Assembly (NCBI RefSeq): GCF_002019765.1
Contig: NZ_KV917380.1
Coordinates: 424,707-488,706, forward strand
Reading direction: 5' to 3'
DNA from: Shouchella oshimensis
GTDB lineage: Bacteria; Bacillota; Bacilli; Bacillales; Bacillaceae_D
DNA length: 64,000 nucleotides
Part shown: one piece after another, positions 28,103 to 39,073 of the stretch
Layout: each line of letters begins with the position of its first letter
Numbering within the stretch: the stretch's first letter is position 1
Notes under the pieces: generated by a model
Database searches by the model: none
Told to the model about the DNA's origin: nothing
Seen by the model: the letters and a program-made list of their open reading frames with translations, nothing else
Made by a program: the position numbers and the translations under genes

Positions 28103-29986
28103 TTACGATTGATTATATTTGTTCTGGTAATGAGCGAGAGCAAGTAGCGGATAGAAATACCGGTAACTATGGTAGTGAAAATAAATTCGGTCAGCTAGTC
28201 CTTTACCAACGGGATACGCGTTTGTCCAGTCTGAACTAGTATGAAGATGGGCAAGCAAATAACGAACCCCGTCTCGAATCGATTTTTCAGGATAATCAAG
28301 TGTTGCAATAAGTGCATCGATCGCCCAAGCTGTTTGAGTGAGGTTGCTTGCAGGTAGCTTGGTGAATGTCTTGTTTCGATCGCTTAAACAAGATTCTCCC
28401 CATCCTCCATCTTGATGCTGAATGCTTTTAAGCCAGTTCACTGCTTTCCTTACATGAGGTTCATCTTTAGACACTCCAGCTGCGTCAAGAGCTGTTAATG
28501 CTGCCCACGTACCATAGATGTAATTTACACCCCATTGTCCTTCCCATGAGCCGTCCTTTTGTTGATTTCTTTTAAGCCAGCGAATGCCTCTTTTCAGTAC
28601 CTTTTCATCTTTTGGTACATGAGTGAAATTCCCGAGAAACTCTATGACTCTACCAGTTAAATCTGGTGTGCTTGGATCAGTTAGAATGCCTTTACTTTCT
28701 TGGATAGGAAGGAGTGCAAGAAGCCGGCTGTTGGTGTTTTTTTCAAACGCGCCCCAACCACCGTCGCGGTTTTGCATAGACGTAACCCACAGCGTACCAC
28801 GTTTCCATGCCTCCTTTATTTCTTCATTTTCTACGGCTTGGGCAGTGATGGCACGAAGTGAAGAGGTTGTATCATCCATATCCGGTTGAATCGAATTAAT
28901 GGTAGAGAATCCCCAGCCACCTGGAAGAATTCCTGGATTATGAACAATCCAGTCTCCGTATGTATTGTGCTGCTTCTGTACTAAGTAACTTGAAGCTTTT
29001 TGAATCATCTCGTCGGATGGCTTTACCTTGGCTTCCTGTAAGGCATAGCTAATGAGGGACGTATTCCAAATCGTTGCCGTTGTAAATTGTATATGAGGTT
29101 TCCCATTCACTGTCGTTTGAAAAGACTTTAAGCCTTCCATGGCTTTTTCGATTAGTGGATCGTGTTTGGGGTGACCTAGAGCAAGAAGAGCAAATACCAT
29201 AAACATTGTTGATGTAAAGTAACTAAAGAGCGTCCCATCTTGTTCAGTTGCGTTCATCATATAGCGCTTTGCCTGACTGATGGCAAGTTGATGAATATTC
29301 GTTGGGCCAGGAATGACCTTTTTAACTAAATAGTGAATGGTACCGTGAAGTTTACGAGAGGCCTCTCCATCCACCCAATCTAAGAAGGGGTCGTTTCTTG
29401 ACTGGCTATACAAGTCAGAAAGATCAGGACTTCTTGATGTTGTGACTTGTAATTTATGATCGGCAGCGATTAAGAGAGGTACCATGTGAGCCCGCCCATA
29501 GACAGACATACTAAATAAATTAAATGGAAAAGCAACTGGTAATAGTATGAGTTCAATAGGGATAGGAAAGAAAGAAGGCCATTTGTATTGTCCGGTTAAC
29601 AGAAGAACAAACTTTGTTAATAACGTTGTTTGTTCAATGCCACCATTGGTTAGAATAAATTGCTTTGCTTTTTGCAGGCGCTGATCATTTTTTGACAGAT
29701 AGCCAGAATATAAGAGTGCATAATAACACTCAACTGTTGTGGTCAGGTTCCCTTCGTTCTCATCTTTAACTAGTTTCCAAGCGCCATTTTCACCTTGTAA
29801 GCTTAACAAGCGTTCGGCTAATGCTTGAATAAGTGTCTCATCGTCCTTCTCCAATGTACGTAACAAAATAATCATATAAGCATCCGTAAACGTTCCGGCT
29901 TCAAACGGATACTGCCATGAGCCATCTTCAAGTTGATCTTCTCGAAGCTTTGAAACTAACGTATCAATTGCTGCTTGAATCTTCAT
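28103..29986 (-). CDS. sqhC: Squalene-hopene cyclase family terpene cyclase (SqhC, sporulenol synthase-like)
   Basis: A 627-residue class II triterpene/sesquarterpene cyclase, close to the roughly 630 residues of B. subtilis SqhC. The proton-donating DxDD motif is DMDD at 369-372 followed by TTSSL; several QW repeats are visible (QLEDGSW 18-24, QGENGAW, QNRDGGWG, QQKDGSW, QHQDGGWG). The TTSSL context resembles tetraprenyl-beta-curcumene cyclases rather than hopanoid producers. It would make sporulenes or related polyprenoid lipids at the membrane, a spore-associated trait. No prenyltransferase lies nearby. Faces away from the intergenic repeat upstream. Confidence 0.88.
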   Translation of the reverse strand: MKIQAAIDTLVSKLREDQLEDGSWQYPFEAGTFTDAYMIILLRTLEKDDETLIQALAERLLSLQGENGAWKLVKDENEGNLTTTVECYYALLYSGYLSKNDQRLQKAKQFILTNGGIEQTTLLTKFVLLLTGQYKWPSFFPIPIELILLPVAFPFNLFSMSVYGRAHMVPLLIAADHKLQVTTSRSPDLSDLYSQSRNDPFLDWVDGEASRKLHGTIHYLVKKVIPGPTNIHQLAISQAKRYMMNATEQDGTLFSYFTSTMFMVFALLALGHPKHDPLIEKAMEGLKSFQTTVNGKPHIQFTTATIWNTSLISYALQEAKVKPSDEMIQKASSYLVQKQHNTYGDWIVHNPGILPGGWGFSTINSIQPDMDDTTSSLRAITAQAVENEEIKEAWKRGTLWVTSMQNRDGGWGAFEKNTNSRLLALLPIQESKGILTDPSTPDLTGRVIEFLGNFTHVPKDEKVLKRGIRWLKRNQQKDGSWEGQWGVNYIYGTWAALTALDAAGVSKDEPHVRKAVNWLKSIQHQDGGWGESCLSDRNKTFTKLPASNLTQTAWAIDALIATLDYPEKSIRDGVRYLLAHLHTSSDWTNAYPVGKGLADRIYFHYHSYRYFYPLLALAHYQNKYNQS

Positions 29987-30061
29987 ACGAGCCCTCCCGC
30001 CGAACAGTTACTTCTACAATCTATTCAGTAGGAAAAGCAGACATGACGATAAAAGAAAAAC
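29987..30061. other. Gap between terpene cyclase and repeat element
   Basis: Short A-rich spacer carrying the cyclase ribosome binding site; nothing else seen. The remaining gap to 30346 is filled by the repeat element. Confidence 0.5.
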
Positions 30062-30333
30062 AGGCTGGGACATAACGAAAAGTAGTATTTGAAAAGACGA
30101 ATAGTCTAAAATATGTTGAGTAGCACCGCTACAGGAGAATCCTTCGCTTTCCGGGGACACGGCCTCAGCCTCCTCCGTGGAAAACCGCCACTCCGAGTCT
30201 TCAGACACGTGCTGATTCCCCAGGAGTCTTCGGATTCTCCTTCCGCTCATTTTCATAGAAAACAAACGACGAACGTTCCTATTTTCAGGAATGTTCGTCA
30301 TTTTGGTCTGTCTATCTACTTTTGTCCCAGCCT
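30062..30333. repeat. Structured inverted-repeat-bounded element, copy 1 (272 bp)
   Basis: Ends AGGCTGGGACA (30062-30072) and TGTCCCAGCCT (30323-30333) are perfect inverted repeats. Inside, GGAGAATCC (30134-30142) pairs with GGATTCTCC (30232-30240), and GACGAACGTTCCT (30268-30280) with AGGAATGTTCGTC (30287-30299), the latter followed by ATTTT. No plausible protein is encoded. A second copy lies at 37901-38140. It sits 13 bases from the stop of the ABC permease gene. It may act as a terminator or structured RNA, or be a non-autonomous mobile element. Confidence 0.88.
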
Positions 30334-30346
30334 CTCGTCTATTGAA

Positions 30347-31213
30347 TTAGCCTTTTGTACCCGAGATCACCACGCCTTGGATAAAATATTTCTGTGCGAA
30401 AAAGAACAGAATGAGAGGTGGTAGCACAGCCATTACGGAGGCGGCCATAAGCAACTGCCAAGGTGTAGCCGCGTACGCAGCAGTGAAATTGGCTAATCCT
30501 AGAGACAAGGGATACAGCTCTTGAGAATTTAAATAAATAAGAGGTCCCATTAGATCATTCCAGCGAAACATAAATTCAATGATTGCAGCTGTTGCCATCG
30601 CAGGTAAAGAGAGAGGAAGTATAATCTTAAAGAAGATCGTTAAGTAACCGCCGCCATCAATGGTTACCGCCTCATCTAGTTCTTTCGGTAAGCCGAGATA
30701 AAACTGACGTAACAAAAAGATTAAGAATGCACTTCCAGCTATGGCAGGGATGGTTAAAGGTAAATACGAATCCACCCACCCAATCGAATTAAACAGTAAA
30801 TACTGTGGAATCATAACCACTTGTTGTGGGAGCATCATCGTACTTAACACAAGCGCGAACAAGAATGTTTGCCCTCTAGCGCGAAAGCGAGCAAAACCAA
30901 ATGCAATCATAGCGGAAAAGAAAACCGTACCGACTACCGTGACGACGGTGTACCAGGATGTGTTCCAGAGGTAGGTTGCAAACGGATGGTTCTGGAAGAC
31001 TTCAAGATAGTTGGACCAATTCCAGGTAGTAGGAAAAAAAGAGAGTGGGTTTGAAACAATTTCTTCCAAGCTTTTAACCGATGTAAAAAACATCCAAGCT
31101 ACTGGAAACAAAAACAAAGATAGACAAGCCACTAAACCAGTATACGTAAGCATTTTTCCACCTTTAGATAGCTCGCCAGGGGAATAATGAGTTTTATTAA
31201 ATAGGTGCTTCAT
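30347..31213 (-). CDS. Carbohydrate ABC transporter permease (MalG type), system 1
   Basis: A 288-residue CUT1-family permease with six transmembrane helices. The EAA loop is ELDEAVTIDGGGYLTIFFKIILPLS (about 180-205), which docks the ATPase. The start ATG is preceded by a GGAGG. It is the third gene of an SBP-permease-permease operon; 17 bases separate it from the upstream permease. No ATPase gene accompanies it. The substrate is probably an oligosaccharide or glycoside, given the neighbouring GH2 hydrolase. Confidence 0.92.
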   Translation of the reverse strand: MKHLFNKTHYSPGELSKGGKMLTYTGLVACLSLFLFPVAWMFFTSVKSLEEIVSNPLSFFPTTWNWSNYLEVFQNHPFATYLWNTSWYTVVTVVGTVFFSAMIAFGFARFRARGQTFLFALVLSTMMLPQQVVMIPQYLLFNSIGWVDSYLPLTIPAIAGSAFLIFLLRQFYLGLPKELDEAVTIDGGGYLTIFFKIILPLSLPAMATAAIIEFMFRWNDLMGPLIYLNSQELYPLSLGLANFTAAYAATPWQLLMAASVMAVLPPLILFFFAQKYFIQGVVISGTKG

Positions 31214-36747: not shown

Positions 36748-37902
36748 ATGTCGATGTTAAATGAAAAAGAACTCTTGCTAAATCAAGGAACGATTGGGAA
36801 TCACATTTTCAAAAATCGCTACATTGTGGCGCCAATGACACGTGTGTCCTCTTCTCAAAATGGAAAGCCAAACGAGACAGTCCACCGTTATTACGAACGT
36901 TTTGCAAAAGGTGGGTTCTCTGCCATTATTTCAGAAGGAATTTATCCAGATACCGAACATAGTCAAGGGTATGAGTGCCAGCCTGGCTTAGCTACTCATG
37001 AACAAATGGAAGCTTGGAAACCCATCGTCGAGACAATTCATGAAAATCGAAGCTTATTCATTGCTCAACTCATGCACGCAGGGGCTCAGTCCCAAGGAAA
37101 TGCCTATACGAATGAGACTGTGGCCCCAAGCGTATTCACACCACCCAGCGATAAAGTGGCTCTATATGGTGGACAAGGATCTTTCCCTGAGGCACGCCCG
37201 CTTTCAATCGAGGAGATAGAGCAAATTAAAAAAGGATTTGTTCAAGCTGCTCGACGGGCGCAAGAAGCAGGGTTTGATGGCATCGAGTTACATGGAGCGA
37301 ATGGTTATTTGCTTGATCAGTTTCTTTCAGAAGGAAGTAACCAACGTGGGGATGCTTATGGTGGTTCTATTGAAAATCGGCTCAAACTGATTGTTGATCT
37401 GATTACAGAAGTTCGAGAAGCCGTTGGAGCTACGATGTTGCTTGGCGTGAGAATTTCACAAATGAAAGCGACGGACCCTTCTTATAAATGGGAGGGCGGC
37501 GAGGCAGAGGCAGCTACACTCTTCTCAGCTTTAGGAGAAACAGACATTGATTATATTCATTTGTCTGAGCGTGATGCGAAAATCCCGGCATTTGGAAATG
37601 ACTCCATGCTTATGTCAGAAGTTGCGAAGCGCTATTCGAATAAGCCAATTATTGCGTGTGGAAGTCTTGAAAATCCAGCTGAAGCTGCGAAGCTAATTGC
37701 CATTGAACAGTGTGACTTTATCGCATTAGGTAGACAAGCACTTGTTCAGCCTGATTTTCCGAATCGCTTTGATCAGGGAGAACCTCTGATGGAAGTGAGT
37801 CATGTGAAGCACATATTATCCGACAATACAACCCCGGCTGCTGCTATATCAGAAGAGGAATTGAAGATGGACGTAATTAAAAATGAAGAAGTAACACAAT
37901 GA
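36748..37902 (+). CDS. NADH:flavin oxidoreductase, Old Yellow Enzyme family
   Basis: A 384-residue FMN-dependent TIM-barrel reductase. NRYIVAPMTRVSS (about 24-36) begins the barrel; GFDGIELHGANGYLLDQF (about 180-197) carries the substrate-binding His/Asn pair of the HGAN motif; SNQRGDAYGGSIENR (about 201-215) is the family signature; GRQALVQPDFPNR near the C-terminus binds FMN phosphate. It reduces alpha,beta-unsaturated carbonyls or nitro compounds with NAD(P)H. The stop codon TGA is completed by the first two bases of the repeat element that follows, so the final residues may be a product of that insertion. Confidence 0.92.
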   Translation: MSMLNEKELLLNQGTIGNHIFKNRYIVAPMTRVSSSQNGKPNETVHRYYERFAKGGFSAIISEGIYPDTEHSQGYECQPGLATHEQMEAWKPIVETIHENRSLFIAQLMHAGAQSQGNAYTNETVAPSVFTPPSDKVALYGGQGSFPEARPLSIEEIEQIKKGFVQAARRAQEAGFDGIELHGANGYLLDQFLSEGSNQRGDAYGGSIENRLKLIVDLITEVREAVGATMLLGVRISQMKATDPSYKWEGGEAEAATLFSALGETDIDYIHLSERDAKIPAFGNDSMLMSEVAKRYSNKPIIACGSLENPAEAAKLIAIEQCDFIALGRQALVQPDFPNRFDQGEPLMEVSHVKHILSDNTTPAAAISEEELKMDVIKNEEVTQ

Positions 37903-38140
37903 GGCTGGGACATAACTAACAGTAGTATTTGAAAAGAGTAGCACCGCTACAGGAGAATCCTTAACGACCTCAGCCTCCTCCGTGGAAAACCGCCACTCCA
38001 GGGTCTTCAGACACGTGCTGATCCCCCAGGATTCTTCGGATTCTCCTTCCGCTAATGTTCATATAAAACAAACGACGAACGTTCCTATTTTCAGGAATGT
38101 TCGTCATTTTGGTCTGTCTATCTACTTTTGTCCCAGCCTC
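37901..38140. repeat. Structured inverted-repeat-bounded element, copy 2 (240 bp)
   Basis: Ends GAGGCTGGGACA (37901-37912) and TGTCCCAGCCTC (38129-38140) are perfect inverted repeats. Same orientation as copy 1 but with a deletion of about 23 bases after GAAAAGA and a shortened segment after GAGAATCC. The arms GGAGAATCC (37952-37960) / GGATTCTCC (38038-38046) and GACGAACGTTCCT (38074-38086) / AGGAATGTTCGTC (38093-38105) are kept unchanged. It fills the whole gap between two convergent genes. Confidence 0.9.
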
Positions 38141-38580
38141 TACGTGTGTACGCTTCGATTTAAAGACATGGTTTCAACTCGCTCATTTTGCTCTTTAACT
38201 GTAAAGCCAAACGATTCATAGAGCGGTTTAGCTCGACTGCCTTTAAAAATTTTTAATGAAATCTCACGTTTGTCTTTGTAGTGCTCAACAACATGCTGAA
38301 AAACAGCACGACCCATTCCGTTCCCTTGAAACGATGGTTCAATATAAAAGTTCTTTAATTCAACATAATCGTTGTGTTCAATGATTCCAATACATCCAAT
38401 TGTACCTACCTCATCTACTTTAATTAAATAGATATGCTCAGGGTGGAAGTTCTCTTCAAAACGTTTAAAAACACGTTCATAAGGGAGTTGAAGCCGATCG
38501 AAATCCGCTTGTAATACGTTCATTCTTAATTGTGCTAAATAGGGTTTATCTGAGTAGCTACTTTGACTCAATGTGAACAT
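38140..38580 (-). CDS. GNAT family N-acetyltransferase
   Basis: A 146-residue GNAT protein. Motif A: VELKNFYIEPSFQGNGMGRAVFQHVVEHY (about 79-107; Q-x-x-G-x-G acetyl-CoA loop), motif B KPLYESFGFTVKEQN (about 122-136). ATG 38580 is chosen; AAAGGAGG lies inside the end of the upstream ASCH gene, 4 bases away, suggesting coupled translation. The stop codon TAG uses the last base of the repeat element. Acceptor unknown. Confidence 0.85.
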   Translation of the reverse strand: MFTLSQSSYSDKPYLAQLRMNVLQADFDRLQLPYERVFKRFEENFHPEHIYLIKVDEVGTIGCIGIIEHNDYVELKNFYIEPSFQGNGMGRAVFQHVVEHYKDKREISLKIFKGSRAKPLYESFGFTVKEQNERVETMSLNRSVHT

Positions 38581-38584
38581 TTGT

Positions 38585-39073
38585 TTAAACGGATACCTCC
38601 TTTGCTTCGTTTTTATACACAAGCTTTAGCCATTCGTATACAACTAAATCGTTCTCTTGAAACGTTAGCCCTAACGTAGGTGCCAACTGAGAAAAGAAGG
38701 GTTCGTGAACTTCTTTCCAATAGGCAAGGGTTTGATCCCCTTCTCCTTCTGCGTAGGCGTGTTTCTCAGTCATTTCGTTATAAGGTAGGATATCCACTTT
38801 AATGGTCTGCATAATTGCCTGAGCAACACCGTTTCCATCTAAAATAATGTTCCACTGCCCTTTAACTGGTAAAGGTTCATTTTCTTTTTCATAGGCGTCA
38901 TAATAAGAGGAAGTACCTTGTTTCTTTCCTTCTAGCACGAGCTTGCATAAGTCATCTGCCATCTCTTTTGTACCATCGCCAAAAGCCCACGCTATGTACG
39001 TAGATTGAGAAAATTGAGGGTGTTGAGATGTAAAAGCGTTCCACATTTCTTGAATAGACGAATGTTCAGTCAT
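38585..39073 (-). CDS. ASCH domain-containing protein
   Basis: A 162-residue protein of COG4405: W-rich N-terminus, GKKQGTSSYYDAYEKENEPLPVKGQWNIILDGNG (about 50-85) with the Gly-Lys-x-x-(G)T-x-S motif of ASCH domains, a beta-barrel fold related to PUA that may bind RNA or act on nucleoside derivatives. Function is not established. GGGAG precedes the ATG. Operon with the downstream acetyltransferase. Confidence 0.85.
   Translation of the reverse strand: MTEHSSIQEMWNAFTSQHPQFSQSTYIAWAFGDGTKEMADDLCKLVLEGKKQGTSSYYDAYEKENEPLPVKGQWNIILDGNGVAQAIMQTIKVDILPYNEMTEKHAYAEGEGDQTLAYWKEVHEPFFSQLAPTLGLTFQENDLVVYEWLKLVYKNEAKEVSV

What the first reader, a model, noticed from the sequence alone, without database searches (positions are those of the whole stretch)
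30062..30333. Two-copy structured intergenic element with conserved pairing arms
Copies at 30062-30333 and 37901-38140 share terminal inverted repeats (AGGCTGGGACA/TGTCCCAGCCT) and two internal paired arms (GGAGAATCC/GGATTCTCC; GACGAACGTTCCT/AGGAATGTTCGTC). The copies differ by two deletions and scattered changes, yet every arm is unchanged, which suggests selection on folded RNA or DNA. The last hairpin plus ATTTT is terminator-like. Similar GAGGCTGGGACA ends recur between genes in Firmicutes, but I know of no agreed function. It could be a MITE-like mobile element that doubles as a terminator.
Basis: partly seen in the sequence, partly recalled or inferred. Interest (0 to 1): 0.72.

Follow-up and report, generated by a model that had tools for sequence, protein, structure and literature searches.

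The report
Mini-transposon that swaps gene terminators
The repeat is a small transposase-less jumping element that, by comparison with a related genome, lands on the hairpin stop signals at gene ends, replaces them, and brings a hairpin of its own that probably does the same job.

Summary
The element is real. It is not two-copy: at least 68 copies in this genome carry paired ends. It is best explained as a MITE of the IS1182 (IS1272) insertion-sequence group. Its ends, GAGGCTGGGACA, are those of autonomous IS1182 elements: 62 of 80 relatives of an IS1182 transposase carry them at both ends. No target duplication was seen. Of 68 copies, 20 had an orthologous site in the stretches of a relative that I took: 15 are unoccupied with a hairpin where the element sits here, 2 occupied, 3 unclear. 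Copies sit at gene ends: 34 convergent, 32 tandem, 0 divergent of 68. Stem-loop replacement is published for IS1272/TnSha1. I did not find in print a high-copy MITE that does it, or the strong hairpin about 30 nt inside this MITE's end and all 41 distinct relatives' left ends (28 of 41 with a T-rich tract). So it probably swaps terminator for terminator; no transcript data were available.

The parts
30061..30334 (+). copy 1 of the MITE (272 bp from AGG to CCT; 274 with the outer base on each side; the left outer base here is C, not the usual G)
30061..30076 (+). left end, ..GGCTGGGACATAAC = the usual right-end type of IS1182-group ISs
30319..30334 (-). right end, read inward GAGGCTGGGACAAAAG = close to the usual left-end type (AAAC) of IS1182-group ISs
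30134..30240 (+). core bounded by the GGAGAATCC / GGATTCTCC arms; missing from the ~174-bp copies; related cores occur without these ends in G009 and inside other elements of the family
30268..30299 (+). subterminal hairpin, 13 pairs (one G-T) on + followed by ATTTTGG; on - one A.C mismatch in the stem, followed by GTTTGTTTT: proposed terminator. Only the + strand passes the tool's terminator scan
37901..38140 (+). copy 2 of the MITE; GA of the left end completes stop TGA of the left gene, G of the right end completes stop TAG of the right gene
38074..38105 (+). the same hairpin in copy 2
30347..31213 (-). ABC-type permease gene (PF00528) that reads into copy 1
28103..29986 (-). squalene-hopene cyclase-like gene (PF13243, PF13249) downstream of copy 1
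36748..37902 (+). FMN oxidoreductase gene (PF00724) ending at copy 2
38140..38622 (-). GNAT acetyltransferase gene (PF13508) ending at copy 2 from the other side

Best explanation
The element is a non-autonomous derivative (MITE) of the IS1182 family, IS1272-like group. A transposase acting in trans joined its ends at the foot of a DNA stem-loop, usually the hairpin of an intrinsic terminator just past a gene's stop codon. The stem-loop was lost, so there is no target duplication, while outer base pairs and the A/T tracts often stayed. The element brings its own hairpin near the IS-left-type end, with T-rich stretches after it on both strands, and this plausibly ends transcription in place of the lost terminator. 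Shown here by comparison: ends, copy number, replacement of hairpins, position at gene ends. Inferred: that an IS1182 transposase did it, that the inner hairpin terminates transcription, and that this makes insertion nearly harmless and allows about 70 copies.
For: Ends: 62 of 80 loci of IS1182 transposase relatives have GAGGCTGGGACA within 2 mismatches at both ends, 1.8-2.1 kb apart (shuffled null 1.2% and 1.4% per end). The query transposase is IS1182 by NCBIfam, 410 bits against a cut-off of 270. The MITE keeps two unlike ends, TAAC (63 of 68) and AAAG (65 of 68), as the ISs mostly have TAAC (42 of 62) and AAAC (51 of 62). Target: of 68 copies, 20 had an orthologous site in the stretches of G003 that I took; 15 are unoccupied with a hairpin there, 2 occupied, 3 unclear. 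Of 11 tight sites, 10 fold at -15 kcal/mol or lower against 11% of 400 non-coding controls. At copy 1, G002, G003 and G009 all carry a hairpin. Flanks: the first base outside the 12-bp end pairs across the element in 47 of 59 copies (9 of 68 beside an IS110 left out) against 38.4 expected, 0 of 2000 shuffles; for the ISs 48 of 62 against 34.1, 0 of 2000. Position: 34 convergent, 32 tandem, 0 divergent, 1 inside an ORF, 1 edge of 68; median 11 bp from a gene's 3' end; other gaps in the same loci 87 tandem, 45 divergent, 21 convergent. Inner hairpin: 41 of 41 distinct IS left ends fold with z <= -2, median start 30 nt inside; in the MITE its stem is the least variable part measured.
Against: No IS1182 transposase was found in this genome, nor by DUF772 in five other genus genomes that hold copies (G002, G003, G005, G008, G012), so the mobiliser is absent or lost. 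Termination was not measured. The tool's terminator scan passes only the + strand; on the other strand the stem has an A.C mismatch, so termination in both directions is less sure. Tandem copies show no preferred orientation (17 against 15). No compensatory changes in the named arms. One of 11 tight sites has only a weak hairpin (-8.4). Only one species pair was compared in bulk, and 48 of 68 copies gave no site.
Confidence: 0.83

Rival explanations
1. Same MITE, but it inserts more or less anywhere and survives mainly between gene ends, because insertions in promoters or genes are selected out; the hairpins at empty sites are there only because most gene ends have terminators.
For: Gene ends commonly carry terminators (recalled), and 11% of random non-coding controls fold at -15 or lower.
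Against: The hairpin is not beside the element but missing from the occupied site, exchanged near the base of its stem in the tight sites, and bases outside the end repeat pair across the element more often than shuffled.
Confidence: 0.07
2. The inner hairpin is an insulator kept from the parent IS, where it stops host transcription from running into the transposase gene; in the MITE it is a relic and termination of host genes is incidental. (Not exclusive with the best explanation: it concerns only the hairpin's role.)
For: In 28 of 41 IS left ends there are at least 5 T in the 9 bases on the inward side; the MITE shows no orientation preference; only one strand passes the terminator scan.
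Against: 22 of 41 also have at least 5 A in 9 on the outer side, fit for both directions; in the MITE, which has no gene to protect, the stem is the least variable part measured.
Confidence: 0.3
3. A structured regulatory RNA family under selection for its fold, spread by duplication, not a transposon derivative.
For: Very stable fold, z -8.05 and -7.05; weak Rfam match of the core to tsr24, 20.3 bits against a gathering score of 50; low variation of the hairpin stem.
Against: No Rfam match at gathering score; no two-sided changes in the named arms over 68 copies, one in the inner core; ends identical to those of ISs; sites empty in a relative.
Confidence: 0.04
4. A REP/BIME-like or other hairpin element moved by a Y1 (RAYT) or unknown transposase, with end repeats resembling IS1182 by convergence.
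For: No IS1182 transposase was found in the genome; intergenic palindromic repeats are typical of REP (recalled).
Against: 12- to 16-base likeness to both unlike IS1182 ends and the same hairpin-replacing footprint as IS1272. No RAYT search was made.
Confidence: 0.04

Closest known systems
IS1272 / TnSha1 (IS1182 family, Staphylococcus), PMC5678879 and PMC4923244
   Same: Target is an inverted repeat or terminator hairpin, the stem-loop is deleted, no target duplication (passages of both, and section 22 of PMC5678879). An IS1272 primer in PMC5678879 contains GAGGCTGAGACG, close to these ends.
   Different: Those are an autonomous IS and a composite transposon; this is a transposase-less MITE of about 70 copies. 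In the passages seen there was no mention of a terminator supplied by the IS itself.
MITEPye1 of Paracoccus yeei (IS1182-related MITE), PMC11578231
   Same: Non-autonomous, end repeats like IS1182, folds into a long stem-loop (passages).
   Different: Has direct repeats, 1-3 copies per chromosome; no terminator replacement in the passages seen.
GAGGCTGGGACA-ended elements of other genera in the family (G022, G023, G024, G031, G035, G040)
   Same: Same ends, sizes 42-291 bp in 20 stretches that I chose for close end pairs, many with a related core.
   Different: Other inner sequence; the 42- and 49-bp forms are little more than end-loop-end hairpins.
Intrinsic (Rho-independent) terminators
   Same: Stem followed by T-rich tract on the + strand, at gene ends.
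   Different: Carried on a mobile element; termination not measured.

Membership tests
MITE of the IS1182 family (IS1272 group) | terminal inverted repeats match those of autonomous members | tested here: met
   62 of 80 IS loci carry GAGGCTGGGACA at both ends within 2 mismatches; unlike 13th-16th bases also largely kept
MITE of the IS1182 family (IS1272 group) | short, no transposase gene | tested here: met
   173-275 bp in 68 copies
MITE of the IS1182 family (IS1272 group) | mobility: present/absent difference at orthologous sites | tested here: met
   15 unoccupied, 2 occupied, 3 unclear of 20 recovered sites in G003; 48 of 68 copies gave no site
MITE of the IS1182 family (IS1272 group) | IS1272-type footprint: hairpin target replaced, no target duplication | tested here: met
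MITE of the IS1182 family (IS1272 group) | autonomous partner in the same genome (usual, not defining) | tested here: not met
   0 DUF772 matches and 0 tblastn matches; the same DUF772 search does find 9 in G001
MITE of the IS1182 family (IS1272 group) | moved in trans by an IS1182 transposase | not testable with these tools
   needs a transposition assay
Intrinsic transcription terminator | stable stem then T-rich tract, downstream of genes | tested here: met
   (one site in the region scanned, 30268-30299, + strand; shuffled mean 0.4; none on -)
Intrinsic transcription terminator | transcripts end there | not testable with these tools
   no RNA data
Structured RNA under selection | compensatory changes in paired arms | tested here: not met
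   0 two-sided changes in end repeat, GGAGAATCC arms and hairpin over 68 copies, 1 cell in the inner core
Known Rfam family | score above gathering | tested here: not met
   none in the window

The most novel reading that the evidence does not exclude
IS1182/IS1272-group elements and their MITEs are terminator exchangers: each insertion removes a host terminator and installs a built-in one, so an element can reach about 70 copies with little harm, and dozens of genes in this genome now end on a transposon-borne terminator. A second, RNA-guided IS110 element exploits the same refuge: all 10 copies found of it sit beside this MITE.
Probability: 0.5. Interest if true: 0.72.

Novelty: new variant of a known kind. 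Interest (0 to 1): 0.56.

Why it matters
It gives a likely answer to what the recurrent GAGGCTGGGACA sequences between genes of Bacilli are: ends of IS1182-group elements and their miniatures. It points to hairpin-replacing transposition at tens of sites in one genome, and raises a testable idea of how a transposon can be harmless: replace a functional host part with an equivalent part. If right, part of a genome's terminators is of transposon origin, and terminator annotation, operon boundaries and MITE detection (which often looks for target duplications) should take it into account.

Tried and rejected
Structured regulatory RNA: no Rfam match at gathering score, one weak match to tsr24, no compensatory changes in the named arms. 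Target-site duplication: none seen by eye; flanks tend to be inverted rather than direct. Orientation bias as a sign of terminator function: none, 17 against 15. Autonomous partner in the own genome: none found. Bridge-RNA guide of the neighbouring IS110 for the MITE end: only a 6-base match, AGCCTC, in its 5' non-coding part, which chance can give. Plasmid and phage collections: one record, a Radiobacillus plasmid with a 76% match to 45% of the query, none in phages. Literature: the exact 12-base ends occur in 2 papers, by title both unrelated; searches listed only part of what they found (5 to 20 titles each) and, beyond the IS1272/TnSha1 and MITEPye1 papers, no listed title describes such an element. 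Passages were seen in PMC4923244, PMC5678879 (plus its section 22), PMC9208149, PMC11578231 and PMC3852290; the rest as listings only. PMC9208149 reports IS1182 among families over-represented between convergent genes (passage), which fits.

Mended on checking: one search had at least one row in the wrong orientation; one search repeats the count with every row turned by similarity to copy 1.

Full report
What is there. The two copies and their arms are as described. The end repeat AGGCTGGGACA occurs 107 times in the 4.06-Mb genome, 0 times for the reversed control. A DNA search gave 40 scored copies, the query itself and 39 at 95-98% identity (40 was the number scored of 88 candidates, not a total). 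I took stretches around the places listed and those with at most one mismatch; two-mismatch matches away from any end repeat were left out. These hold 68 copies with both ends, 170-276 bp, at most 2 mismatches in the two ends together. Copies with a damaged end are not in the 68. Main sizes are 272-275 bp and 173-175 bp, others between. Orientation on the chromosome is even, 34 to 34.

Ends. The 12-bp end is GAGGCTGGGACA: the outer G is present in 64 of 68 copies on the left and the outer C in 67 of 68 on the right. In the genus, 4 of 13 genomes have DUF772 transposases, the window's own genome not among them. One in G001 has exactly this end before the gene; its far end was not found, and another transposase-like ORF follows (by eye). 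That protein is IS1182 family. A scan of named genomes with it found 125 loci and kept the best 80, from Evansella, Thalassobacillus, Oceanobacillus, Exiguobacterium, Halobacillus, Trichococcus and others. In 62 of 80, both ends lie within 2 mismatches of GAGGCTGGGACA; the other 18 include contig ends and degenerate or missing ends. The loci are not independent, since several come from one genome; they hold 41 distinct left ends. The ISs are slightly asymmetric in bases 13-16 (AAAC left 51 of 62, TAAC right 42 of 62) and the MITE shows a similar asymmetry (TAAC 63 of 68, AAAG 65 of 68). PMC5678879 states that IS1272 has 16-bp ends matching at 15 of 16 (passage); here 31 of 62 ISs also have 15 of 16.

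Targets. At copy 1 the close relatives G002 and G003 and the more distant G009 have no element but a short hairpin in an A- and T-rich setting. Three genomes with a hairpin at the site make the empty state the likely ancestral one. I then compared all 68 copies with 38 stretches of G003. For 48 no paired flanks were found, probably in the main because the region was not taken. Of 20 with paired flanks, 15 are unoccupied with a hairpin at the spot (14 clear by eye, 1 weak at 846229). One holds the short form where this genome has the long form (157596), one is occupied in both (526826), and three are unclear (216347, 2242907, 2354462). Eleven of the 15 are tight (gap up to 65 bases); in four (137997, 405203, 646902, 677576) the flanks align less closely. 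Examples: the hairpin GAGTCCGT..ACGGACTC is exchanged for GAGGCTGG..CCAGCCTC with TTTT kept (644867); GCACTTTC..GAAAGTGC is exchanged with most of the T run kept (732131); in 536228 outer pairs of the old stem remain outside the element. At copy 2, G003 ends both neighbouring genes with TAA, this genome with TGA and TAG made with the element's own end bases, and the proteins end at the same places (direct reading). In the 11 tight sites the best 50-mer folds at -8.4 to -26.4 kcal/mol, 10 of 11 at -15 or lower; controls 11% of 400.

Flanks and position. Just outside the 12-bp end the two flanks are complementary more often than in shuffles: 47 of 59 against 38.4 (0 of 2000); position 2, 45 against 40.6 (48 of 2000); no excess further out. 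The 9 of 68 copies next to an IS110 were left out. The ISs show the same at position 1, 48 of 62 against 34.1, and at position 3, 37 against 28.7. A simple ORF-based gene call puts 34 copies between convergent genes, 32 between tandem genes, none between divergent genes, 1 inside an ORF and 1 at an edge; other gaps in the same loci are 87 tandem, 45 divergent, 21 convergent. The median distance to a gene's 3' end is 11 bp, and 30 of 32 tandem copies are nearer the 3' end. The gene call is crude (ORFs of 90 aa or more), and where an IS110 lies beside a copy the IS110 or the gene beyond it was taken as the neighbour.

The inner hairpin. The tool scan of 29950-30400 finds one terminator-like site, 30268-30299 on the + strand, and none on the - strand, where the stem has an A.C mismatch. 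It starts 35 nt inside the IS-left-type end. All 41 distinct IS left ends have a strong hairpin (mean z -7.3 against 60 simple base shuffles each, 41 of 41 at -2 or lower), with a median start 30 nt inside; sequences differ widely, structure and place mostly agree. 28 of 41 have at least 5 T in the 9 bases inward, 22 at least 5 A outward, 20 both. Right ends fold too (41 of 41), which may be the transposase gene's own terminator. No other IS family was measured as a control, so I cannot say that this is special to IS1182. Within the MITE the stem is the least variable part measured: 0.005 minority bases per site against 0.017 to 0.066 in the others.

Mechanism. Published work on IS1272 and TnSha1 describes insertion into hairpins with loss of the stem-loop and no duplication; five of the TnSha1 target hairpins were matched to RNA-seq terminators there (passages). 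The footprint here is the same. I infer that an IS1182 transposase, not found in this genome, spread the MITE. G003 has 20 exact ends against 100 here, so most of the growth probably came after the two lineages split. That the element restores termination is inference from position and structure.

Spread of the ends. In the taxonomic family 32 of 41 genomes have GAGGCTGGGACA, some richly (96, 65, 32 sites), with 2 hits in all for the reversed control. In 299 genomes of the phylum 58 have it, but outside the class mostly one site per genome, and there the reversed control also scores single hits. Other genera have their own elements with these ends, from 291 bp down to 42 bp in the 20 stretches that I chose.

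What it is and is not. It meets the tests made for a MITE of the IS1182 family except residence of the autonomous partner, which is usual but not defining. It works like IS1272 in target choice. It is not shown to be a structured RNA. Another IS1182-related MITE is in print (MITEPye1), so the kind is known; the terminator-replacing, high-copy form with a built-in hairpin is what I did not find in the searches listed.

Noticed in passing
L248-L257 (G000:C1 near 299548, 574006, 670815, 1260215, 1827984, 2327546, 2971038, 2975894, 2991161, 3644920): All 10 places found of an IS110-family, RNA-guided transposase element in this genome (17 match rows) sit within a few bases of an end of this MITE, always with the same IS end towards it. 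It looks like an IS110 whose target is the MITE end or the hybrid terminator.
   Followed up: partly
window 30134-30240; L121-L127: The core with the GGAGAATCC/GGATTCTCC arms is related to stand-alone repeats in G009 that lack GAGGCTGGGACA ends and are bounded by other inverted repeats: perhaps a second hairpin-dwelling element nested in the MITE.
   Followed up: partly
58808, 2327368, 2990983, 3029753 and others in G000; G003 site of 157596: About 174-bp forms equal the long form minus about 99 bp between two TCCTTC direct repeats (by eye); at one orthologous site G003 has the short and this genome the long form, as if the core can be lost in place by slippage.
   Followed up: partly
L233, L247 (G035): Relatives of 290-291 bp carry a further hairpin inserted inside the core.
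   Followed up: no
L241 (G024), L242 (G031): 49- and 42-bp elements that are just end, short loop, end: minimal GAGGCTGGGACA hairpins. Moved as such, or worn-down remnants?
   Followed up: no
G332: A 2.1-Mb genome of the same class holds 53 exact GAGGCTGGGACA sites.
   Followed up: no
   Followed up: no
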